The notes under the pieces: model-generated
Databases searched by the model: none
What the model saw: the letters and a program-made list of their open reading frames with translations, nothing else
What the model was told of the DNA's origin: nothing
Part shown: one piece after another, positions 3,207 through 21,982 of the stretch
How positions within the stretch are numbered: position 1 is the first letter of the stretch
Layout of the letters: every line of letters begins with the position of its first letter
Source of the DNA: a virus
Length of the DNA stretch: 24,712 nt
Reading direction: 5' to 3' (one strand)
IMG/VR virus record: IMGVR_UViG_3300026130_000395
Coordinates: 1-24,712 of that record
Program-made: the position numbers and the translations under genes

Positions 3207-3213
3207 TATTTAT
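3207..3213 (-). promoter_or_regulatory. T4-late-like promoter box (ATAAATA)
   Basis: Minus-strand ATAAATA, close to the T4 late consensus TATAAATA, overlaps the stop codon of the Mom-like gene and lies about 26 nt before the ATG of the 412-aa gene. The identical heptamer recurs in several other gaps between genes in this window (5836-5830, 7553-7547, 12273-12267, 23167-23161). Confidence 0.5.
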
Positions 3214-4028
3214 TACGAAAACAGATCATCAAAGGTACTTTCACCAGTCTGCTTATGAGCATTGATGTTCTTAGCGTTATATGTAGCTTCTTCAAATGTA
3301 AATGCTGGCTGGTCAACTTTAATCTTACTACCTCTACCACCTGTCACATCAAACCACTCTAAGTCGCCGTCTTTTGGATACTCAAAGTTCCATGTCAATG
3401 TAGACTCATTCTTCATTAGTCGCTTGGCTTTCTTATTCAACGGATAAATGTATCTGAACATATAACCCTTGATTTTCTTAATGCCTTTGTGCTTCATGAA
3501 GTCAGATGTTAGCCAGAATAGTTTCTCTTTGCCTTCAAATTCAGCATTCTCTTTTAACAATGCTTTGGTTGATCTAGGATGTAACTTTTCGCCATTCTCC
3601 ATGAGATATACATCAGTTAGATATTTCTCGCCAAAGTAGAAGTTGCTTGCTTGATATACGTAACCACACTTGCCCATGATACCATCGGCCATTGTGTATA
3701 GAAATAGCTTCTCTGGTGTATTCTGTTTCATCCACTTAACCGTTGCGCTAATCATCTGTGACTCGCTGTTGCGTGGCATTTCTTCATCCATACACATCTT
3801 ACCAATCTCATAATAATGCTCTGATTCTAGCCCAGGAAACATCTTATTGATTGTTTGTCGTGGTTGAGTGCCCCAACCTAACGTTAGGACACCCACCAGT
3901 TTGTTCTCAACAAAAAAGCCGAGAAAGTGTTTTGTAAGTTTTGGCATTACCGGTGAGTAATGATACTTCTGTACAAATTCAGTGGCCACTTTTCTGCTTA
4001 ATTCTCTGACAACAAAATCGTATTTCAT
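3213..4028 (-). CDS. Mom-like GNAT-fold DNA-modification protein
   Basis: 271 residues. The N-terminal 150 residues resemble the phage Mom-like GNAT family: KYHYSPVMPK, a GFFVENKLVGVLTLGWGTQP strand-turn-strand, YEIGKMCMDEEMPRNSESQ, and YTMADGIMGKCGYVYQASNFYFG. Mu Mom adds a carbamoylmethyl group to adenine N6 in DNA, protecting the phage from restriction enzymes; that activity is known for Mu Mom and only inferred here. The C-terminal half is lysine-rich (HKGIKKIKGYMFRYIYPLNKKAKR) and fits nucleic-acid contact. ATG at 4028 overlaps the preceding 52-aa gene as ATGA. It could be another GNAT acetyltransferase; the family call is based on remembered motifs. Confidence 0.65.
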   Translation of the reverse strand: MKYDFVVRELSRKVATEFVQKYHYSPVMPKLTKHFLGFFVENKLVGVLTLGWGTQPRQTINKMFPGLESEHYYEIGKMCMDEEMPRNSESQMISATVKWMKQNTPEKLFLYTMADGIMGKCGYVYQASNFYFGEKYLTDVYLMENGEKLHPRSTKALLKENAEFEGKEKLFWLTSDFMKHKGIKKIKGYMFRYIYPLNKKAKRLMKNESTLTWNFEYPKDGDLEWFDVTGGRGSKIKVDQPAFTFEEATYNAKNINAHKQTGESTFDDLFS

Positions 4029-6460: not shown

Positions 6461-6760
6461 TTATTCTTCTTCAATACTCACATCAAGAGGAAAACCTGCG
6501 CGGCGAGCCTCTGTAACAGTCTCTACTGACTTTTGCTCAGCAACTTCATATGAATAGGTGCCAGCTACTGCTCGTCCTTTCTCATGTACTTCCATCATAA
6601 TCTCATGTGATTCCTGCGTAGTCTTATTGAATATATTCATAAGAACGGCTACTACAAAATCCATTGGTGTTGTATCGTCATTAAGCATAATGACATGATA
6701 TTTACTAGGACCTTTAAGTTTAGTCATTTCTGTGCTAGTACTTCGTTGTACTTGTGACAT
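6461..6760 (-). CDS. clpS: ClpS adaptor
   Basis: 99 residues from ATG 6760, preceded by GAGGTTAAT; a start at 6802 would run through the hsp20 terminator, so it is rejected. The core KYHVIMLNDDTTPMDFVVAVL, then a VHEKGRAVAGTYSYEVAEQK segment, matches ClpS, including the NDDxTPMxFV segment that forms the N-degron pocket. Bacterial ClpS binds the ClpA N-domain and delivers N-end-rule substrates to ClpAP. No ClpA is encoded in this window, so it would act on host ClpA, divert it from other substrates, or possibly work with another ATPase; these are inferences. It lies just after the hsp20 terminator without an obvious promoter, so read-through is likely. Confidence 0.93.
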   Translation of the reverse strand: MSQVQRSTSTEMTKLKGPSKYHVIMLNDDTTPMDFVVAVLMNIFNKTTQESHEIMMEVHEKGRAVAGTYSYEVAEQKSVETVTEARRAGFPLDVSIEEE

Positions 6761-6775
6761 ATTAACCTCATTTAG

Positions 6776-6800
6776 AAAAAGGGCGGCTGTTACACCGCCC
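6776..6800 (-). terminator. Intrinsic terminator after hsp20
   Basis: On the minus strand GGGCGG (6800-6795) and CCGCCC (6786-6781) form a 6-bp GC-only stem with an 8-nt loop, followed at once by TTTTT. It starts 10 nt after the hsp20 stop codon. clpS follows 16 nt later, so it probably attenuates rather than isolates clpS expression. Confidence 0.85.
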
Positions 6801-6810
6801 AAGTGTTTAT

Positions 6811-7236
6811 TTACTTGATTTCAAGTTTGCGTGGAAGCAACTCATCTGGTACGATTTGCTCTAGATAAACGTTTAGTACACCTAGCTCAAGTCTTACATC
6901 AGTTACTTCTACATGGTCAGCTAGTTGGAATTGACGCTCAAACGAACGACCCGCTAAGCCACGATGTAGATATTCTACTGTTTCGTCCTGCTCTGGTGCT
7001 GTACCAGTAACAGTTAGTTTATTACCATCTTGTGTGACTTCTAGGTCTTTTTTATCAAAACCTGCCACAGCAATGCTAATAACATATACATTGTCACCTG
7101 TTTTCACAATGTTGTATGGAGGATATCCACTGGATGTAGTACTAGTGAATGCTCGTTCCATTTCATTAAATAGTCGGTCAAAACCAACAGTTGATTTGTA
7201 AAAGTCAGGTAGATTTTTAGTAGTTAGTCGTGTCAT
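6811..7236 (-). CDS. hsp20: Small heat-shock protein (Hsp20/IbpA type)
   Basis: 141 residues with an alpha-crystallin domain. The segment YPPYNIVKTGDNVYVISIAV and then AGFDKKDLEV, YLHRGLAGRSFERQFQLADHV and a GVLNVYL strand match IbpA-type proteins. The C-terminal tail ends KLEIK, an IxI-like motif used in oligomerisation. It binds unfolding proteins without ATP and hands them to other chaperones. ATG 7236 has a strong GGAGGA site, 18 nt after the 63-aa gene, so both share the promoter at 7565-7536. A hairpin terminator follows. Hsp20 genes are known in marine T4-like phages; a role in virion assembly or stress protection of infected cells is inferred. Confidence 0.95.
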   Translation of the reverse strand: MTRLTTKNLPDFYKSTVGFDRLFNEMERAFTSTTSSGYPPYNIVKTGDNVYVISIAVAGFDKKDLEVTQDGNKLTVTGTAPEQDETVEYLHRGLAGRSFERQFQLADHVEVTDVRLELGVLNVYLEQIVPDELLPRKLEIK

Positions 7237-7254
7237 TTTGAAATCCTCCGTAAA

Positions 7255-7446
7255 TTAAAGTTTAAATGCTTTCTTAGCTTCGGCTACATAAGAGTCAGCC
7301 GCTGAAACAATACCGTTAGCAAGTGAGCGATTAGCTTCAACTGCCGCTAGTGCTGGTTCTTTGTAAGAATCCATAAAATAAGTATCTACGAAGTTTTTCT
7401 GTGCGTCGGAAACGCTAGTGATCATTGTATTAATTGCTTGAAACAT
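7255..7446 (-). CDS. 63-aa alanine-rich helical protein, first gene of the hsp20 operon
   Basis: 63 residues from ATG 7446, chosen for the AAAGGAGAAAAC ribosome site; a start at 7470 would fall inside the leader hairpin. The protein is one long amphipathic helical sequence, MFQAINTMITSVSDAQKNFV..., ending AADSYVAEAKKAFKL. Length and pattern faintly resemble fragments of alphaproteobacterial phasins, which coat storage granules and can act chaperone-like, but I cannot assign that. Placement directly ahead of hsp20 under one promoter suggests a stress-related role. Function is unknown. Confidence 0.78.
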   Translation of the reverse strand: MFQAINTMITSVSDAQKNFVDTYFMDSYKEPALAAVEANRSLANGIVSAADSYVAEAKKAFKL

Positions 7447-7529
7447 AATGTTTTCTCCTTTATTAAGCAAGATTGCGAGGACCCTAATGGCATCCTCTAT
7501 TAAGATAGCAGTACTCTTACTACTTTCTT
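7447..7529 (-). promoter_or_regulatory. Structured 5' leader with ROSE-like hairpin over the ribosome site
   Basis: The leader between the predicted transcription start (about 7529) and the ATG at 7446 is about 83 nt. At 7470-7455 the RNA reads UUGCUU-AAUA-AAGGAG, so the ribosome site AAGGAG can pair with UUGCUU through a stem holding one G-G mismatch. A U(U/C)GCU anti-Shine-Dalgarno with a G-G pair is the hallmark of ROSE RNA thermometers in small heat-shock operons. A second small stem (GAGGA at 7497-7493 with TCCTC at 7481-7477) lies upstream. This is a visual prediction only; no folding energy was computed. Confidence 0.42.
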
Positions 7530-7535
7530 AAATTC

Positions 7536-7565
7536 ATTATATACTGTATTTATCTCGGTTGTCAA
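7536..7565 (-). promoter_or_regulatory. Sigma70-type promoter of the hsp20 operon, with embedded ATAAATA
   Basis: Perfect TTGACA (7565-7560) and perfect TATAAT (7541-7536) on the minus strand, 18 nt apart, start just after the groES stop codon. An ATAAATA box (7553-7547) lies in the spacer, so early (host sigma70) and late-type initiation could both occur. It drives the 63-aa gene and hsp20. Confidence 0.75.
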
Positions 7566-7568
7566 GAA

Positions 7569-7826
7569 TTATTTTACTATTCCGACAACTTTTTCGTCAT
7601 CCATGATGACATATGTTTGGTCGCCAAGTTTAACTTTTTCTCCTGAACCTTGGACATACAGGATAGTGTCACCTTCTTTTACCGTGGCACTGGCGCTGGC
7701 ACGAACAACCAGTCCACGGGAAGGTTTGGCACTCTCTTTTTCTACAAAGACAATGCCAGCTTCGGACTTGTTTAACACGGGTTCAGGTTTAACACAAATA
7801 AACTTGTTTATTGGTCTAAAGTCCAT
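7569..7826 (-). CDS. groES: GroES-like co-chaperonin
   Basis: 85 residues, shorter than the 97-residue bacterial protein. FRPINKFICVKPEPV forms the first strand, and NKSEAGIVFVEKE is the position of the mobile loop that contacts GroEL. SRGLVVRA, the EGDTILYV strand and a C-terminal YVIMDDEKVVGIVK follow the Cpn10 pattern. It caps host GroEL; phage versions such as T4 gp31 allow folding of the large capsid protein, which is the likely role here (inference from family). It follows the bS21 gene by 9 nt with an AGAGGT site and ends the clpX-infC-rpsU group. No groEL is in the window. Confidence 0.9.
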   Translation of the reverse strand: MDFRPINKFICVKPEPVLNKSEAGIVFVEKESAKPSRGLVVRASASATVKEGDTILYVQGSGEKVKLGDQTYVIMDDEKVVGIVK

Positions 7827-7835
7827 GATTACCTC

Positions 7836-8087
7836 TTAGTATAAACGATTAGTACGGAGACTTTCTTGTGATACACGCTTACGATTCCGAGAAACCGCTT
7901 GCTTCTTTGCCTTTGTCCGGGCAGTAGTTGGCTTTTCATATTCACATCGTTCACGATACTCTTGAAGTTTGCCATCGTTGTTGACTTTCTTTTTGAACTT
8001 GCGTAGCGCTTGTTCTACATTACCGTTTTGTACTTCTACCGTAAGACCAAAGCCCCGTGGTAGTGCTGGGTTATTCCTGTTACTCAT
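7836..8087 (-). CDS. rpsU: Ribosomal protein bS21 homologue
   Basis: 83 residues. The core VEVQNGNVEQALRKFKKKVN, a YRERCEYEKPTTARTKAKKQ segment and a basic tail (VSRNRKRV) match bS21, which sits near the mRNA exit side of the 30S subunit beside the anti-Shine-Dalgarno helix. Phage-borne bS21 is known, and is thought to replace the exchangeable host copy and favour phage mRNAs. The N-terminal 12 residues and the C-terminus are longer than E. coli bS21 (71 residues). ATG 8087 has an AAGGT site 8 nt after infC. Its place between infC and groES suggests co-expression of two translation factors. Confidence 0.92.
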   Translation of the reverse strand: MSNRNNPALPRGFGLTVEVQNGNVEQALRKFKKKVNNDGKLQEYRERCEYEKPTTARTKAKKQAVSRNRKRVSQESLRTNRLY

Positions 8088-8095
8088 TGTTTACC

Positions 8096-8617
8096 TTATG
8101 CTATTTTTGCGCTGACTCTGTTTCCTGACCGTGAAAAGCCTTCTAGCTCCACTTCAAGTTTCTCAGCGAATTGTTTAATTAATGCTTCTGCCAAATCCGC
8201 CCGGCCTCGTTCCCGTCCTTTAAGTGTGACAGTAATCGTGACTTTAGCATTTTTAGCCAGCATTTTGCGAATATTATTACACTTAACCTCAATATCACCT
8301 GTATCAATGTTAAGTCCCATACGAACTTCTTTTTGCTCTACAGCGTTTTCTCGTTGCTTTTTCTTAGCCTCTTTTTCACGCTGTTTTTGCTCATACATGT
8401 ACTTATTCAACTCCACTATGCGACACACCGGTGGATTAGCGGCAGCATTGATAAGAATGATATCTTTCTCTTGCTCTTGTGCCTCGTACATTGCTTGTTT
8501 AAAATCTACTATCTCTCCGTCTATTCGCACTTCTTTCGCACGAATAGCTTCGTTATAGATAATACCTTCATATTTGTCTTGGACACGATTGCGTCCGCGT
8601 CTGTTATCGTTTCTCAC
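8096..8617 (-). CDS. infC: Translation initiation factor IF-3
   Basis: 173 residues, near full IF3 length (180 in E. coli). The N-domain has the NEAIRAKEVRIDGE pattern and ILINAAANPPVCRIVELNKY; a lysine-rich linker (KQREKEAKKKQRE) follows; the C-domain has EVRMGLNIDTGDIEVKCNNI and a VTITVTLKGRERGRADLAEAL segment. IF3 binds the 30S platform, blocks 50S joining and proofreads the start codon. It starts with GTG at 8617, overlapping the clpX stop as GTGA, with AAAGG 9 nt upstream. Its placement right behind clpX and ahead of bS21 suggests coordinated takeover of translation. Both IF3 domains appear intact. Confidence 0.93.
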   Translation of the reverse strand: MRNDNRRGRNRVQDKYEGIIYNEAIRAKEVRIDGEIVDFKQAMYEAQEQEKDIILINAAANPPVCRIVELNKYMYEQKQREKEAKKKQRENAVEQKEVRMGLNIDTGDIEVKCNNIRKMLAKNAKVTITVTLKGRERGRADLAEALIKQFAEKLEVELEGFSRSGNRVSAKIA

Positions 8618-9834
8618 GAAACACTACCTTTAATCATAAAGGGCTTAGCATTTCGTGTAATAGTTTCTTCCGTCACTATGATTTTTTCTACCTTTTGCTC
8701 ACTTAGCTCTGGGAGATTATATTGCGTCTCCATTAAAGCCGTTTCTAATATTTTCTTGAGACCACGTGCCCCAAGGTCCTGGTCGATTGCCTTTTGCGCA
8801 ATCTCTTCCAATGCTTTGATCTTAAACTCTAAATCTATTTTGTCAAGTTTAAATAACGCCTGATATTGCTTTACCAAACTATGCTTCGGCTCAGTCAATA
8901 CTTTAATCAAATCGTCTTTGCTCAACTCGTGTAGAACATTTACACTAGGAAGACGACCACAAAACTCTGGTATCAATCCATACTTCACAAGGTCGTGTGT
9001 CTCCAAATGATTTATCCAGTCGTCATTATTATTTATGCTTGAATTATTAAAACCAATCTTTTTCTTGCCTATTCGCTGTTTTACTACATCATCCAAGCCA
9101 ACAAACGCTCCACCTACCACAAACAGTATGTTAGTTGTGTCTATCTCTACCTCTTCTGGATGAGCACCTGGCTTGTTAGGCACTTTCATCACTGTGCCTT
9201 CCATTAACTTCAATAAACTCTGTTGTACGCCTTCGCCACTCACATCACGACTTAAACTAACCATATCATTGCGCTTGGCTTTCTTGTCAATCTCATCTAC
9301 ATAGATAATGCCTATCTCTGCCTTAGATACATCATAGTTAGCGTTTTGAAGTAGCTTGTGTATGAGAACTTCCGCGTCATCACCAGCATATCCACTTTCT
9401 GTTATGGTAGTAGCATCTGTTATTACGAATGGTACATCTAAAAAGTTTGCCAATGTTTGTGCGATTAATGTCTTGCCTACTCCAGTTGGACCTATTAGCA
9501 ATACATTACTTTTTTGAATAGGCACATCAGTCTCGTTGAATATGCGCTTACAATGATTATACACTGCGACCGATACGCCTTTCTTTACATGCTCTTGGCT
9601 GATAACATGCTCGTTTAATGCCTCATGTATTTCACGAGGCCTAGGCGTAATATATAACTCTTTAAGTCTGCGTTTGCGTTTGTCTTCATTTCTTCTGGTA
9701 TCATCACGAAGTAAGACGTTATGACATAACTCAACACACCGGTCACAGATATGTGTGTCATCGTGACCCGCAAGTAGTTTATCTACTTCTTTTTGTGTTT
9801 TGCCGCAAAAGTTGCAGTGTAGATTTTGTGTCAT
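8614..9834 (-). CDS. clpX: ClpX ATPase, unfoldase of ClpXP
   Basis: 406 residues against 424 in E. coli. The N-terminal zinc domain has C7, C10, C30 and C33. Walker A is GPTGVGKT (115-122), the pore loop is GYAG (148-151, usually GYVG), Walker B is IIYVDEID (176-183), and RDVSGEGVQQSLLKLMEGT follows. The IGF tripeptide that docks on ClpP is present at 260-262. IPEFCGRLP and the sensor-2 stretch GARGLKK (355-361) complete an apparently intact AAA+ protein. It unfolds tagged substrates and feeds them to ClpP. It overlaps the upstream receiver-like gene as ATGA and infC as GTGA, so the three are translationally coupled. The region after IGF (NNSSINNNDD) differs from bacterial ClpX. Confidence 0.96.
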   Translation of the reverse strand: MTQNLHCNFCGKTQKEVDKLLAGHDDTHICDRCVELCHNVLLRDDTRRNEDKRKRRLKELYITPRPREIHEALNEHVISQEHVKKGVSVAVYNHCKRIFNETDVPIQKSNVLLIGPTGVGKTLIAQTLANFLDVPFVITDATTITESGYAGDDAEVLIHKLLQNANYDVSKAEIGIIYVDEIDKKAKRNDMVSLSRDVSGEGVQQSLLKLMEGTVMKVPNKPGAHPEEVEIDTTNILFVVGGAFVGLDDVVKQRIGKKKIGFNNSSINNNDDWINHLETHDLVKYGLIPEFCGRLPSVNVLHELSKDDLIKVLTEPKHSLVKQYQALFKLDKIDLEFKIKALEEIAQKAIDQDLGARGLKKILETALMETQYNLPELSEQKVEKIIVTEETITRNAKPFMIKGSVS

Positions 9835-10271
9835 TCGTCTACTACTTTCATTTCCATTTTAATATACCATTCTAACTCTTCTATACTATTTAGAATGGGA
9901 TAACTCGCTGTAGCATTAAGAAGACGAATCATATCTTTGCGTTTATGTTTCTCGCTAAGAAAAACAGTAATATGATTATCATCACGAGGACGAAGGAGTG
10001 CGGCACATACATCAGTTGGCGAGCATGTGTCAATATCAATAATCATGATATCACACGGCTGTGATACATACCATAACCATGCTACCGTACTCTCATTAGT
10101 AGGCGCTCGTTGAACATTAAAGATAATACTTGTTTGTACAATACTTTCAAAGATATCTTTTATTTGTTGTATCTTCTCTTCATCATTACAGGTGATAAGA
10201 ACAGACATGCCATTTTCAGTCAGCATGAGGTCAGGCGCAGTTACAGTATAGGTACTGTTATCTTGTTTCAT
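9831..10271 (-). CDS. Receiver-like domain protein coupled to clpX
   Basis: 146 residues. After a 22-residue leader, MSVLITCNDEEKIQQIKDIF is a beta-alpha start, followed by CDIMIIDIDTCSPTDVCAAL, HITVFLSEKHKRKDMIRLLN and ASYPILNSIEELEWYIK. This is the order of a response-regulator-like (beta/alpha)5 fold: D at the end of strand 3 (IIDID), S at the end of strand 4 and a helix after strand 5. The conserved receiver Lys is not obvious. The family call is weak. It overlaps clpX by ATGA, and RssB, a receiver-domain protein, is a known ClpXP adaptor, so an adaptor role is an attractive but untested inference. AAGGATTATAC precedes the ATG. Confidence 0.78.
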   Translation of the reverse strand: MKQDNSTYTVTAPDLMLTENGMSVLITCNDEEKIQQIKDIFESIVQTSIIFNVQRAPTNESTVAWLWYVSQPCDIMIIDIDTCSPTDVCAALLRPRDDNHITVFLSEKHKRKDMIRLLNATASYPILNSIEELEWYIKMEMKVVDE

Positions 10272-10280
10272 GTATAATCC

Positions 10281-11873
10281 TTAGATTTCTTTCTTTTGAT
10301 TCAAATCTTTAGTTATTTTGTTATAAACTTCTTCTAGCTTGGTTGGGTCAGTATGAGACAGCATATCCTTGATAAGTTCTTCCTTACTCTTACTTTCGTT
10401 TGCTCTACGTGCCAATTCAGCCTCGTAATCAACCAACGAAGGTGCTGGATGATGTTCAACAATTGGTTCTTTTGGCTTTTCTTTATCAACCAACGGAATT
10501 GATGTAGTTTGCTCTTCAAAGTTAAACTCAGGAAGTTTGACTTCCACTGATTCAGATTTACGATTGTGTTCACGAACCATTGGATTATAGTCACCAATGT
10601 CACCGTAAGAGTTTTCAATTTCTTGATTCATTCGTGAGAACTCTTCCATTATTTCATTGTGTTCCATTTCTTCAATCGGTTTTTCTGGCATAGGAATTTC
10701 TTTTTTATCTGGTTGTTTTTTCTCACGACTAGGAGCATTCTCTATAAGTGTGATACCCGCTATAATCAATACAACTGCCAATGGGTCAAATACTACTACA
10801 AGAATAAGAATAACCCAGCGAACAGCTTCTTCCAGCATGTTAGTCGTGGCTTCATTGCCGTATACCATCTCTGCTATGTACTTGACTGGCCCTACTTCTG
10901 CTTCTAATAGTCGTGCTTGTTTTTCTATTTCAAACTTTTGGTCAAACAACAATTCAATTTCTACATTTGCTTCTTTTATTCTATCTCGTTGTTCGGATAT
11001 ATCAAGCGCAACTTGCTCAGAGTTGTCATTTCTTCCTAGTTGGTCACGTAAACGACTAATTAACTTGTTACTATCTGCTATTTCGTTTTCAGCAATCTTA
11101 CGAATGCGTTGTATCTCATTAGAACTATTATCTCTTAATTCTTGTAATTTGGCAAGTGTTTCTTCACGTTGATTATTTTGAGTAGTCAACCAATCATCTA
11201 CTGCTTTTTTAGTACCAGGGCCATAACGACCGTCAGGTGTTGTGCCTACAAGACGTTGTAGGTCTCTTATATTATTCTCAGCGTTATATGTATTGTATAA
11301 TTCCAATTGCGAATCTATACTTGTTAATTGTGATTCATATGGTGCCAAGTTGTCCAATAAAAGTTGCTTTTGCTCATTAATAGCTGGTTGAATTCTTTCA
11401 TAAGCCGTATCAATTCTTTGTTGCTCTGCGTCTATCTTCTGCTGGATTCCTTCGTCCGCGTCCACATTCGCATTTTCAAGTTTTTGTATTTGTACTTCGG
11501 CACGAGCAACAACTTCTTCAAATCTTGATATCTCGGTTTCAATTCTCTCAATTTGAGCAACACCTTCCGTAGCCTGTGCTGTCTGCTCAATATGAGCCTT
11601 TGATAGGAATCCAAATATTCCCATGCTAGTAATGAACATAAGCAAAACTAGTGCTATGCTTAAATATGTTTTAATGTGCCATGCCGCTTTATCCCAATAG
11701 GTATGAAGCCACACAGCCGTAGTTATCTTGCCAACTTCTAATGCCGCACCCATTATAATAATAGGCAACATAGCGGCCGCAAATATGGCAACCAATCCGA
11801 CAATACTGTAGTACGCGGCTACAGCACTAATCCCTAGTGCTACAAATACTGTCCAGTATCCGAATAGTTTCAT
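10281..11873 (-). CDS. Membrane protein with long coiled coil and peptidoglycan-binding-like segment
   Basis: 530 residues. Hydrophobic segments at about 5-46 (two helices) and 68-90 are followed by a long coiled-coil region (about 95-325), rich in E, Q, R and I heptads. Within it, LQRLVGTTPDGRYGPGTKKAV (about 205-225) resembles a PG_binding_1 repeat. Another membrane helix spans about 351-376. The last 150 residues are charged and disordered (PDKKEIPMPEKPIEE). The layout suggests an inner-membrane protein spanning the periplasm with a cytoplasmic tail. It shares one base with the SNase stop (TAATG). Possible roles are superinfection exclusion or cell-envelope remodelling; the function is not known. 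Confidence 0.85.
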   Translation of the reverse strand: MKLFGYWTVFVALGISAVAAYYSIVGLVAIFAAAMLPIIIMGAALEVGKITTAVWLHTYWDKAAWHIKTYLSIALVLLMFITSMGIFGFLSKAHIEQTAQATEGVAQIERIETEISRFEEVVARAEVQIQKLENANVDADEGIQQKIDAEQQRIDTAYERIQPAINEQKQLLLDNLAPYESQLTSIDSQLELYNTYNAENNIRDLQRLVGTTPDGRYGPGTKKAVDDWLTTQNNQREETLAKLQELRDNSSNEIQRIRKIAENEIADSNKLISRLRDQLGRNDNSEQVALDISEQRDRIKEANVEIELLFDQKFEIEKQARLLEAEVGPVKYIAEMVYGNEATTNMLEEAVRWVILILVVVFDPLAVVLIIAGITLIENAPSREKKQPDKKEIPMPEKPIEEMEHNEIMEEFSRMNQEIENSYGDIGDYNPMVREHNRKSESVEVKLPEFNFEEQTTSIPLVDKEKPKEPIVEHHPAPSLVDYEAELARRANESKSKEELIKDMLSHTDPTKLEEVYNKITKDLNQKKEI

Positions 11874-12232
11874 TAACTTCTTGGACCTCCGTCATACTCT
11901 ACAGCGTGACCTTCAGTGACAAGTTGCTCGTTGATATTCATACGAGTGCCTTCTTCATTTTCAACATGTAGAATACCTAGCACTCTGCCAAACTTGCCTC
12001 TTTTGTTAAGTATAGTTTCAACGATAAACTCTTTGCCTAGTATTTCAGTCAATCGCTGTTTAGCCGCTAAACCACGTTCTTTTTCTTCTAAATCAGTAGT
12101 ACGTGTTTCTGGTGTATTAATTCCATATAGGCGAATACGCTGTTTTAAAAATACGCCGAAGCCTAAATCTATTTCAGCATCTACTGTGTCGCCATCAATT
12201 ATTCTTATTAGTTTTGCTTTGTATGTATACAT
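11873..12232 (-). CDS. Staphylococcal-nuclease-like (TNase) protein
   Basis: 119 residues from ATG 12232; an earlier ATG at 12277 would lie inside the promoter and terminator region. IIDGDTVDAEIDLGFG and QRIRLYGINTPE provide the calcium-site Asp residues and the first catalytic Arg, with Glu following; KFGRVLG supplies the second Arg. This is the SNase fold with a full catalytic set. It degrades DNA or RNA, and its target in the phage cycle is unclear. No signal peptide is present, so it should act in the cytoplasm. It is the first gene after the TATAAATA box and is coupled to the membrane-protein gene by TAATG. Confidence 0.85.
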   Translation of the reverse strand: MYTYKAKLIRIIDGDTVDAEIDLGFGVFLKQRIRLYGINTPETRTTDLEEKERGLAAKQRLTEILGKEFIVETILNKRGKFGRVLGILHVENEEGTRMNINEQLVTEGHAVEYDGGPRS

Positions 12233-12266
12233 TATAATTGTAATTCCTAGAATGTCATAATGTATG

Positions 12267-12274
12267 TATTTATA
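12267..12274 (-). promoter_or_regulatory. Perfect T4-late-like promoter box TATAAATA
   Basis: Minus-strand TATAAATA, identical to the T4 late consensus, lies between the clpP terminator hairpin and the SNase gene, 34 nt before its ATG. It should drive SNase, the membrane protein, the receiver-like gene, clpX, infC, rpsU and groES. Confidence 0.6.
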
Positions 12275-12279
12275 CAAAT

Positions 12280-12300
12280 AAGGCGCCTTGTTGGCGCCTT
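12280..12300 (-). terminator. Hairpin terminator after clpP
   Basis: AAGGCGCC and GGCGCCTT form a perfect 8-bp stem with a 5-nt loop, 28 nt after the clpP stop. The following minus-strand tail (ATTTGTATAAATA) is only partly T-rich, so termination may be incomplete. The TATAAATA box starts 5 nt downstream. Confidence 0.68.
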
Positions 12301-12328
12301 ATATAACTAACACAATGGTAATATATTC

Positions 12329-12943
12329 TTATTTCTTATTAACTACCTTATCCGCTAGACCGTTAGCTACCGCTTCTTCTGCTGATAAGAATGTGTCAAA
12401 CTTCATAGTTTCAAATAACTCATCATACGATTTGCCTGCCGAGTTGTGCTCAACATACTTCTGTGTTAGAAACTCGTTCAATCGCTTAGATTCTTCAAAG
12501 TGACGGCGAGCATCTTCAAACTCTAACTCTTGTACATGTACTGAACCACGTGTGCCTGGAGTACCAGATGATACACGGTGTACCATTGTACGACTACTTG
12601 GTAGTACAAATCGTTTGCCTGGTTCGCCAGACATTGCCAAGAATGAACCCATTGATGCGGCTTGTCCTAGTACGATTGTAGACACTGGCGAGTTGATGTA
12701 CTGCATGGTATCGTAGATTGATAGACCAGCGGTCACTGAACCACCCGGTGAGTTAATGTAGAAGTGAATATCTTCTTCTGAGTTTTGTGATTCTAGAAAT
12801 AGCATCTGTGCTACGACTAGATTGGCTGAATGGTCATTTACATCTGTATTCAGCATTACGATTCGGTCTTTCAGTAGTCGTGAGTAAATGTCATATGCGC
12901 GTTCGCCGCGACCACTTTGTTCAATAACCGTTGGGATTAGCAT
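12329..12943 (-). CDS. clpP: ClpP serine peptidase
   Basis: 204 residues. INSPGGSV starts the oxyanion strand, [10 protein letters not shown] carries the nucleophile Ser97, MVHRVSSG carries His122, and [18 protein letters not shown] carries Asp183 at the place of E. coli Asp171. The His-to-Asp distance is about 12 residues longer than in E. coli because of extra sequence after [20 protein letters not shown], in the handle region that joins the two heptamer rings. The N-terminus lacks an evident propeptide. AGAGGAAGAC precedes the ATG. It follows the oxygenase gene directly and ends at a hairpin. It is the presumed partner of ClpX encoded 2.5 kb downstream under a different promoter. Confidence 0.95.
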
Positions 12944-17691: not shown

Positions 17692-18900
17692 CTAACCTTC
17701 TTGATTTTTTAGAAACTCTTTTAAATTCATTAATGGCAGTGCCACATCAATAGGTCGTAGCATACCGCCTGCTTCGTTTCGGAGAACAGTCATCTTGACT
17801 ACCTCTCCTGGCTTTTTACCTAAGACTATTTTAATCATATCTATTGTGCCTGTCAACTGTTTATCGTCAACCGTTTCTATATAATCACCTTCTTTAATAC
17901 CCGCAAATAAGGCATCAGAATCATCAGGAATAGTTGATATTTTAACCGTTGAAGTAAATCCATTTTCACGCACATTCAACCAATCATCCTGTGATATATC
18001 TTCCATCTTAAAATCAATAGCTGCGTAGGTAGATTCGCCAAATTGTAGAATCTCATTGATAGATTTTTCTGCTTGCCATCCAGCAATCATTAAAGACACA
18101 CCCGCATAAGCCGCGCTGTTTGTACCTGGGTCAAGTATAGCGTCAACTACACCAACCACCTTGCCATCCATGTTAAGCAATGGACCACCACTGTTGCCTT
18201 TATTCACTACCGTATCAGACTGTATCATGAACTGAAATCGGCGAATCTGCCAACGGTCAAGTGCTGTAATGATACCAGAACTCATGCTCCAAGGCAACGA
18301 TAATCCATGGCCAATTGCTACTACTGGGTCGCCTTCTCTTATCTCATTATGGTCAGCCCATTCCAATGCCTTCCAATCGTTGAAGTCATTTCGTTTGACT
18401 CTAAGAACTGCTAGGTCAGCAATCTCATCATATCCTACTATTCTAGCAGGATAATCCCATGCGGTCATCAAATCATTAATTACTAAGTTTGTTTGCTCAC
18501 TATAGTTTATAGCCGTTTCTACCACATGATGATTTGTTACAACATACGCATAATCATCATCCACTTTAACGAACCAACCTGTGCCTATTGCGTTTTCTTG
18601 AGGAACTTCTCTACCAGCTTCTTTTAGTTTTCTCTCATATTCCTCAGTCAATGATATACGAATAAAAACTACACTTTCTTTACCTTCAGTTACTACCTTT
18701 GATACTTTGTTATCAAGTGTTGGTTTATTATTTGCCTGTGTTGCTTTATCAGTCACAACCGATAACTCAGTGTAAGTAGTTTCTAGCGCGTCCTCTATGT
18801 CGGATAACTTTAAACCAACGTGTAACGAAACAACACCCACGACAAACATCAGTAGAATGATTTTCCATTTTGGTAACGCTTTTTTCACGAGTGTCCTCAT
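17692..18900 (-). CDS. HtrA/DegP-like serine protease, membrane-anchored, with PDZ domain
   Basis: 402 residues. A basic N-terminus is followed by one hydrophobic helix (about 13-30), so the protein is probably anchored in the inner membrane with a periplasmic catalytic part. The trypsin-like triad is intact: H125 in TNHHVV, D162 in ADLAVL and S237 in GNSGGPLL. A single PDZ-like domain lies at about 292-385 (FAGIKEGDYIETVDDKQLTG). One PDZ and a membrane anchor make it DegS-like in layout. HtrA proteases degrade or sense misfolded envelope proteins; DegS starts the sigmaE stress cascade. Role in the phage is unknown: envelope quality control or altering host stress signalling. GGAG precedes ATG 18900, just after a terminator. 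Confidence 0.9.
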   Translation of the reverse strand: MRTLVKKALPKWKIILLMFVVGVVSLHVGLKLSDIEDALETTYTELSVVTDKATQANNKPTLDNKVSKVVTEGKESVVFIRISLTEEYERKLKEAGREVPQENAIGTGWFVKVDDDYAYVVTNHHVVETAINYSEQTNLVINDLMTAWDYPARIVGYDEIADLAVLRVKRNDFNDWKALEWADHNEIREGDPVVAIGHGLSLPWSMSSGIITALDRWQIRRFQFMIQSDTVVNKGNSGGPLLNMDGKVVGVVDAILDPGTNSAAYAGVSLMIAGWQAEKSINEILQFGESTYAAIDFKMEDISQDDWLNVRENGFTSTVKISTIPDDSDALFAGIKEGDYIETVDDKQLTGTIDMIKIVLGKKPGEVVKMTVLRNEAGGMLRPIDVALPLMNLKEFLKNQEG

Positions 18901-20893: not shown

Positions 20894-21982
20894 TTAATCC
20901 TCTATCTTTTCCCATGGAACATCTTTATCACCGAAGTGACCATATACACATTCTTTACTATACTTGGTAAAGTTGAATAAGTCAAATCTTTTTATGATGC
21001 CATACGGTGTTAGGTCAATCGTGTCAATCCAATTGCGGATTTCAGTTTCATTGCCATCACTGACAATATACACAGCCATTGGCTCTTTAACGCCAATAGC
21101 GTATGATAGCTGGATTTGACATTCAGATGCCATGCCCTTAGCTACGACATTCTTCGCAAGCCAACGAGCCATATATGCGGCTGAACGGTCTACTTTAGTA
21201 CCGTCTTTGCCGCTAAAAGCGCCACCACCATGTGGAGCATAACCGCCATAAGTGTCCACGATAATCTTGCGTCCTGTAACACCAGCGTCACCATCAGGCC
21301 CCCCGATAACAAAGTTGCCAGTAGGATTAAGATATAGTTTGGTTGTTCCTTCACGATACAAGTCTCCTAATTCTTCAACAATAGCCTGTTTAGCAAGTGC
21401 TTTAGCTTCGTCTTGTACTCCTTCTCCATGTTGCGTAGACACTACTACCGCAGTCGCATACACTGGCTTACTATCAATATATTGAATAGATACTTGTGAT
21501 TTAGCATCAGGGCCAAGTACATCTGGCTGTGCTTCACGCTTTTTATCAAGATTCTTTAGTATCTCATGGGCATAGTGAATAGGTGCCGGCATCATACTAG
21601 GCGTTTCTTTAGTTGCGTAACCAAACATAATGCCTTGGTCACCTGCGCCGAAATCATCTGTGCCTAGCGCAATATCACCAGATTGCGAATGAAGTAGATT
21701 AGTTACTTGTACATGCTTATGATGGAAGCCATCTTGCTCGTATCCAATGTCTTTGATTACACGGCGTACAATACGCTCTACTTCGGCAGGTGACACATTG
21801 AAGTTCTTAACTTCACCAGCTAGTACTACTCTGTTAGTAGTCACTAACGTTTCACATGCGACACGAGTTGTTTCGTCACCTGCCGCTAAGCCAGCATCTA
21901 CAATCGCATCACTGATTTGGTCCGCCACTTTATCAGGGTGACCTTTACTTACGGATTCACTCGTAAAAATATAATCGCTCAT
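20894..21982 (-). CDS. metK: S-adenosylmethionine synthetase
   Basis: 362 residues (384 in E. coli). [18 protein letters not shown] holds the catalytic His and Asp, [16 protein letters not shown] is the adenosine-loop motif, and [20 protein letters not shown] is the triphosphate-binding glycine-lysine motif. All three domains appear complete. The enzyme makes SAM from methionine and ATP. AAAAGGAAAC precedes ATG 21982. The gene is 14 nt after the SnoaL-like gene behind a sigma70 promoter. A methyltransferase-like gene lies just upstream. Extra SAM may support methylation of phage DNA or a secondary modification, or restore SAM; this is inference. Confidence 0.96.

What the first reader, a model, noticed from the sequence alone, without database searches (positions are those of the whole stretch)
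6461..12943. A phage-owned ClpX-ClpP-ClpS system
ClpX keeps four zinc cysteines, Walker A/B, sensor 2 and the IGF ClpP-docking tripeptide. ClpP keeps Ser97, His122 and Asp183. ClpS keeps its NDDxTPM segment. A phage carrying ATPase, peptidase and an adaptor together is unusual. It could degrade host regulators or process virion proteins on its own schedule. ClpX shows GYAG in the pore loop and an altered post-IGF segment, and ClpP has a longer handle region, so the pair may recognise each other better than host parts.
Basis: partly seen in the sequence, partly recalled or inferred. Interest (0 to 1): 0.82.

Follow-up and report, generated by a model that had tools for sequence, protein, structure and literature searches.

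The report
Marine phage protein-degradation and translation kit
A large ocean virus of bacteria carries its own protein-shredding machine (ClpX and ClpP) beside genes that steer translation; the kit itself is already known from other giant phages, but in this ocean group the part that reads the cell's standard "destroy me" tag has been changed in every member examined.

Summary
The window encodes intact ClpP, ClpX and ClpS at the stated places, with catalytic, zinc, Walker, ClpP-docking and N-degron residues present. An independent contig of the same virus agrees.

Two interpretive points change. ClpS is the ClpA adaptor; relatives carry a phage ClpA, so the fuller system is ClpXP plus ClpAPS. 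And it is not unprecedented: cultured jumbo phages PA5oct, Phosso, Atu_ph07 and G hold overlapping sets, partly in the same order.

What looks new is in ClpX. In all 33 main-clade sequences, four of the six residues known to read the ssrA tag are changed (V154A, T199S, R228 and H230 lost). All 38 bacterial ClpX compared keep them. The ClpP-docking IGF is kept 33/33. Many of these phages also carry their own tmRNA, the source of that tag (25 of 39 records); it was not found in the window's own virus.

Best reading: a late-expressed phage ClpXP re-aimed away from ssrA-tagged proteins. New variant of a known kind. Substrates and host are unknown.

The parts
12329..12943 (-). ClpP (204 aa), catalytic S97/H122/D183; begins at the mature N-terminus, no propeptide; ~10-residue insert at the base of the handle helix
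   Evidence: Pfam PF00574 206.7 bits; triad 29/29; AF2 pLDDT 85, TM 0.83 to solved ClpP
12278..12302 (-). G+C-rich hairpin (AAGGCGCC..GGCGCCTT) between ClpP and the nuclease gene, terminator-like
   Evidence: sequence read upstream of SNase
12267..12274 (-). TATAAATA box, T4-type late-promoter-like, in front of the SNase-to-ClpS gene run
   Evidence: only exact match on the minus strand of the window; TAAATA[CT] upstream of SNase in 26/32 relatives against ~0.05 expected per 95 nt
11873..12232 (-). SNase-type nuclease (start re-set to the ATG downstream of the promoter box)
   Evidence: PF00565 39.9 bits; same position in 38/38 upstream-covered loci
10281..11873 (-). 530-aa membrane/coiled-coil protein, family unknown
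   Evidence: no Pfam/PHROG hit; conserved position
9831..10271 (-). 146-aa Rossmann/receiver-like protein, overlaps clpX start by 4 nt; candidate ClpX partner
   Evidence: present 38/38; median dN/dS 0.085; AF2 pLDDT 83; weak Foldseek hits to receiver domains and to a nucleoside deoxyribosyltransferase-like phage protein
8614..9834 (-). ClpX (406 aa): C4 zinc domain, Walker A/B, IGF docking loop; ssrA-reading residues altered (V154A, T199S, R228 and H230 lost)
   Evidence: Pfam; motif counts
8096..8617 (-). translation initiation factor IF-3, overlaps clpX stop by 4 nt
   Evidence: PF05198/PF00707
7836..8087 (-). ribosomal protein bS21
   Evidence: PF01165 53.3 bits
7569..7826 (-). GroES co-chaperonin
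   Evidence: PF00166 47.9 bits; not detected by tblastn in 47 related loci
6811..7236 (-). Hsp20 small heat-shock protein
   Evidence: PF00011 / phrog_432
6461..6802 (-). ClpS N-degron adaptor (NDDTTPM; ClpA-contact residues kept)
   Evidence: PF02617 102 bits; residues 38/38; present 47/47 downstream-covered loci

Best explanation
The cluster is a phage-owned proteostasis and translation operon in a marine clade of large T4-type phages related to Phosso and PA5oct. Phage ClpX docks on phage ClpP through its IGF loops and forms a working ATP-dependent protease. ClpX has been re-specified: the pore residues that read the ssrA C-terminal tag are changed, so it should degrade ssrA-tagged proteins poorly and favour other degrons or adaptor-delivered substrates. 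ClpS works separately, feeding N-degron substrates to a phage ClpA (present in relatives) or a host ClpA. IF-3, S21, GroES and Hsp20 keep translation and folding running for phage proteins, and the run is transcribed late from a TATAAATA box. Shown: intact genes, conserved order, co-occurrence, purifying selection, the pore changes, the promoter-like box. Inferred: complex formation, the substrate shift, late timing, biological role.
For: Intact domains and active sites; ClpP with ClpX in 38/38 and ClpS in 47/47 covered loci, same order; low dN/dS. ClpX V154A 33/33, T199S 33/33, R228 and H230 lost 33/33, loop shorter by 3 in 32 of 33, against V, T, R, H in 38/38 bacterial ClpX; IGF kept 33/33. 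Fei et al. 2020 list Y153, V154, T199, V202, R228 and H230 as the ssrA-degron contacts and report that R228A lowers ssrA and raises N-degron specificity (PMC7652416). ClpA-like ATPases in 9 of 25 relatives' records, the one read in full with IGF. TAAATA box before SNase in 26/32 relatives. Capsid protein of a relative 66-70% identical to Phosso, Vibrio phage 2.275.O and PA5oct.
Against: No biochemistry. T199S keeps the hydroxyl, so only three of the four changes are non-conservative. Main-clade ClpX forms one long branch, so the 33 sequences may reflect one ancestral change rather than 33 independent ones. ClpA is not visible in the window's own 31 kb. The distant clade keeps the ssrA residues and shows no ClpP. 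The TAAATA box is not found before gp23 of G001, which weakens the late-promoter reading.
Confidence: 0.6

Rival explanations
1. The phage parts mainly plug into host machines: phage ClpX docks on host ClpP, and phage ClpS redirects host ClpA, so the effect is rewired host proteolysis rather than a private protease.
For: IGF docking tripeptide unchanged 33/33; ClpS ClpA-contact residues kept 38/38; jumbo-phage review proposes phage ClpS delivers to host ClpAP (PMC7824862); the distant clade has ClpX and ClpS without detected ClpP.
Against: Main clade always carries its own ClpP (38/38) and several relatives their own ClpA, which would be redundant. If the host were SAR11, 15 SAR11 genomes show neither Clp_N nor ClpS.
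Confidence: 0.2
2. ClpP (and perhaps ClpX) serves virion assembly or is packaged: a maturation or quality-control protease for capsid or tail proteins.
For: Window ClpP matches PHROG head-maturation protease families; the PA5oct ClpP feature carries an ESI-MS/MS note in its record, which I read as mass-spectrometric detection; late-promoter-like box.
Against: Closest matches are housekeeping-type ClpP with ClpX-docking context, not gp21-type prohead proteases; the PHROG match reflects fold-level relatedness of S14 peptidases; the cluster is not next to capsid genes in the window.
Confidence: 0.15
3. The system degrades host regulators or defence proteins early to take over the cell.
For: General precedent of phages using Clp proteases; ClpS specificity module present.
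Against: Promoter-like box is of the late type; neighbours are translation and folding genes, not early takeover genes. No substrate evidence.
Confidence: 0.1
4. Bacterial DNA wrongly binned as viral, or a chimeric assembly.
For: Genes are of bacterial families.
Against: Two further contigs match the window at 99.75-100%; 58 viral loci share the order; gp23-type capsid on the same 192 kb contig; gene order differs from bacterial tig-clpP-clpX.
Confidence: 0.01

Closest known systems
Pseudomonas jumbo phage PA5oct and relatives (Arenbergviridae; Paride, MIJ3)
   Same: ClpX - S21 - (2 genes) - Hsp20 - ClpS in one run, with ClpP and ClpA within 26 kb; closest phage ClpP, 61.6%, with a handle insert; RKH loop residues also absent
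   Different: PA5oct ClpX keeps V154 and its docking tripeptide is MGF, not IGF; ClpP is ~10 kb away; IF-3 is not in the block; FtsH present
Sinorhizobium phage Phosso and phage AP-J-162
   Same: ClpX - IF-3, then S21, Hsp20 and ClpS in the same order over 17 kb; ClpP, ClpA and a permuted tmRNA elsewhere; AP-J-162 reported with tmRNA, six Clp ORFs, clpX beside IF-3 (PMC11242549)
   Different: 469-472 kb genomes; Phosso ClpX keeps V154, T199 and R228 (H230 is N); ClpP far from ClpX
Agrobacterium phage Atu_ph07
   Same: ClpX-IF3 adjacent, Hsp20-TK-ClpS nearby, plus ClpP and ClpA (PMC6102473)
   Different: S21 not annotated in the stretch read; no tmRNA found; ClpX keeps RKN
Bacillus phage G gp257-gp258
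   Same: adjacent ClpP-ClpX pair and a tmRNA in the genome
   Different: ClpX keeps V154, T199, R228, H230; docking loop LGF; no ClpS/IF-3/S21 annotated next to it
Phage-encoded two-piece tmRNA (Methylophilales phage Melnitz)
   Same: alphaproteobacterial-type permuted tmRNA in a marine T4-like phage (PMC9004378)
   Different: no Clp genes mentioned in that paper's text

Membership tests
ClpX (AAA+ unfoldase) | C4 zinc-binding domain | tested here: met
   PF06689 59.1 bits; cysteines 38/38
ClpX (AAA+ unfoldase) | Walker A/B, GARGL sensor 2, SGEGVQQ | tested here: met
ClpX (AAA+ unfoldase) | IGF tripeptide for ClpP docking | tested here: met
   38/38
ssrA-reading ClpX (E. coli type) | Y153, V154, T199, V202, R228, H230 | tested here: not met
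   Y153 and V202 kept; V154A, T199S, R228 and H230 lost in 33/33 main-clade sequences
ClpP (S14 peptidase) | Ser-His-Asp triad and ClpP fold | tested here: met
   29/29; Foldseek TM 0.83 to solved ClpP
ClpP (S14 peptidase) | tetradecamer stimulated by a Clp ATPase | not testable with these tools
   needs purified proteins
ClpS N-degron adaptor | N34, D35, T38, H66 pocket and E79/K84 ClpA contact | tested here: met
   38/38 each
ClpA partner for ClpS in the same virus | Clp_N domain ATPase with ClpP-docking loop | tested here: inconclusive
   present in 9/25 relatives' records; not within the window's own sequence
Phage trans-translation RNA (tmRNA) | alpha_tmRNA / permuted tmRNA match with tag ORF | tested here: inconclusive
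   25/39 relatives, tags by ARAGORN; none in window or its 6.5 kb extension L251
PA5oct/Phosso-type jumbo-phage Clp module | ClpX-(IF-3)-S21-Hsp20-ClpS gene order in a related T4-type phage | tested here: met
   capsid protein of a relative 66-70% identical

The most novel reading that the evidence does not exclude
These phages run a split, private degradation code. They supply their own tmRNA, which tags stalled nascent chains with AA-ending peptides, and their own ClpXP whose pore has lost the ability to read that tag. ssrA waste is thus left to ClpA or the host while phage ClpXP is reserved for other substrates, possibly delivered by the receiver-like 146-aa protein encoded directly before clpX.
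Probability: 0.2. Interest if true: 0.82.

Novelty: new variant of a known kind. Interest (0 to 1): 0.55.

Why it matters
Phage Clp genes have been listed before, but I found no clear function assigned to them. A clade-wide rewrite of exactly the residues that structural work assigned to ssrA recognition, with docking kept, turns a vague auxiliary gene into a specific prediction that a standard GFP-ssrA assay can settle. With phage tmRNA, ClpA and ClpS in the same viruses, it suggests that some large ocean phages control the infected cell's protein turnover themselves.

Tried and rejected
SAR11 host: the genome scan returned only Pelagibacteraceae ClpP, but that scan is limited by exact peptide patterns and database abundance. 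In about 390 Pseudomonadota genomes SAR11 ties with others (206 bits against 207.6), and window G+C (39%) is high for SAR11 (from general knowledge). An alphaproteobacterial ClpP source is favoured (tree); the host is left open.

h146 as homologue of the Phosso protein encoded before its ClpX: hhalign E 0.17, rejected as unproven; no phage hits by tblastn.

h146 as an RssB-like adaptor: fold is receiver-like but E-values are marginal and the best viral hit is a deoxyribosyltransferase-like protein; kept as an idea only.

tmRNA in the window's own virus: not found in 31 kb. The peroxiredoxin gene that precedes it in several relatives lies 785 bp from the end of L251, so absence is not shown.

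SmpB in 20 records: none, so a phage tmRNA would need host SmpB.

ClpP handle insert as a clade marker: polymorphic, and found outside the clade in PA5oct.

Full report
What was checked. The window is a 24,712-base viral record. All recognisable genes lie on the minus strand. Two other viral contigs match the window at 99.75% over 8,454 bp and 100% over 7,527 bp, so the arrangement is not an assembly accident.

What is really there. In the direction of transcription the order is ClpP, a hairpin, a TATAAATA box, SNase, a 530-aa membrane coiled-coil protein, a 146-aa protein, ClpX, IF-3, S21, GroES, a 71-aa protein, Hsp20, ClpS, then a glutamine amidotransferase and nucleotide or DNA-modification genes. 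h146-ClpX and ClpX-IF3 overlap by 4 bases, which suggests translational coupling. The finding is therefore a translation-plus-proteostasis operon, not an isolated Clp trio.

Conservation. A viral scan with ClpX gave 58 loci. In the main clade ClpP, SNase and h146 were each found in 38 of 38 loci with at least 5 kb upstream of ClpX. ClpS was found in 47/47, IF-3 and S21 in 44/47 and Hsp20 in 38/47 of those with at least 3 kb downstream. GroES was found in none but the window's own virus. Median dN/dS over moderately close pairs is 0.08-0.22 for all genes tested. A distant clade (ClpX 48%) keeps IF-3, Hsp20 and ClpS but shows no ClpP in fragments of 25-66 kb.

More Clp parts in relatives. The three largest relatives, 184-205 kb, hold a second, diverged ClpP with an apparently intact triad. 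Nine of 25 records hold a 746-770 aa ATPase with a Clp_N domain; the one read in full has an IGF loop. This is the natural partner of ClpS.

The ClpX pore. Cryo-EM and mutational work names Y153, V154, T199, V202, R228 and H230 as the residues that bind the ssrA tag. R228A lowers ssrA and raises N-degron specificity, and human ClpX, altered at two of these positions, does not degrade ssrA substrates (PMC7652416). In the 33 main-clade sequences (the window and its near-identical contig L002 both counted), V154 is A in all, T199 is S in all, and R228 and H230 are lost in all with a loop shorter by three in 32. All 38 bacterial ClpX keep V, T, R and H. The docking IGF is kept 33/33. The five distant-clade sequences keep the bacterial residues. 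Caution: the main clade is one long branch, so this may be a single ancestral change, and T199S is conservative.

tmRNA. ARAGORN and Rfam both find an alphaproteobacterial-type permuted tmRNA in relatives, 25 of 39 records by covariance model. Tags such as ANDNYSPEMALAA, ANNNYAPAMALAA and ANDNRAPAMAIAA are longer than the SAR11 tags ANESYALAA or ANQKFALAA. An ATAAATA box lies at the 5' end of 15/15 distinct phage tmRNAs against 0.03 expected per 60 nt. No SmpB was found. tmRNA was not found in the window's own virus within 31 kb. Phage tmRNAs are known (PMC9004378), and phage AP-J-162 is reported with tmRNA and six Clp ORFs.

Expression. TAAATA[CT] lies near -50 of the SNase start in 26 of 32 relatives against about 0.05 expected per 95 nt, and is rare before most of the other genes. 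This suggests one main promoter of T4 late type for the run. The same box was not found before gp23 of one relative, so late timing is inferred, not shown.

Known relatives. PA5oct has ClpX-S21-Hsp20-ClpS with ClpP and ClpA nearby. Phosso has ClpX-IF3, S21, Hsp20, ClpS. Atu_ph07 has ClpX-IF3 and Hsp20-TK-ClpS. Vibrio phage 2.275.O has IF3-S21-ClpS. Phage G has ClpP-ClpX. The capsid protein of a 192 kb relative is 66-70% identical to those of Phosso, 2.275.O and PA5oct. An earlier survey found Hsp20 and two Clp proteases frequent near phage bS21 (PMC9723584). The kind is therefore known.

Structure. The window ClpP model (pLDDT 85) matches solved ClpPs (TM 0.83). The insert falls at the low-confidence base of a long handle helix. 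h146 models as a Rossmann/receiver-like fold with only marginal database matches.

Verdict. Observation confirmed; interpretation partly supported; new variant of a known kind. The specific, testable novelty is the altered ssrA-reading pore of a ClpX that keeps its ClpP docking and, in many relatives, coexists with a phage tmRNA. Host, substrates and function are unproven.

Noticed in passing
L070 4595-4959 (-); L212-L232; 25 of 39 related records: Permuted alphaproteobacterial-type tmRNA genes with phage-specific tags, often about 8-14 kb downstream of ClpX on the same strand, with an ATAAATA box at the 5' end.
   Followed up: yes
L093 12641-13321; L066 11433-12071; L084 2188-2829: A second, diverged ClpP-like protease with an apparently intact triad in the three largest relatives.
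   Followed up: partly
L069 7623-9887 (-) and L076-L083: Phage ClpA-like ATPase (746-770 aa); the copy read in full has an IGF docking loop.
   Followed up: partly
15 SAR11 genomes (G026-G040): No Clp_N and no ClpS match in 15 SAR11 genomes of 0.8-1.1 Mb, so these SAR11 may lack the ClpS/ClpA pathway.
   Followed up: partly
window 9831-10271: 146-aa receiver/Rossmann-like protein strictly linked to ClpX (38/38), family unnamed.
   Followed up: partly
window 7569-7826: GroES present only in the window's virus and its near-identical contigs among the loci compared.
   Followed up: no
window 3213-4028: Mom-family DNA modification protein (PF25680, 192 bits), likely anti-restriction.
   Followed up: no
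window 17692-18900: DegP/HtrA-like trypsin-PDZ protease with an N-terminal membrane segment in a phage.
   Followed up: no
window 20894-21982 and 734-1876: Complete S-adenosylmethionine synthetase and an IMPDH/GMP-reductase family enzyme.
   Followed up: no
L205 record PV764938.1 349596-350198: Sinorhizobium phage Phosso matches the permuted tmRNA family at 113 bits; ARAGORN does not call it.
   Followed up: partly
window 10281-11873: 530-aa protein with N-terminal membrane helices, coiled coil and a stretch that looks like a peptidoglycan-binding motif (TTPDGRYGPGTKKAV).
   Followed up: no
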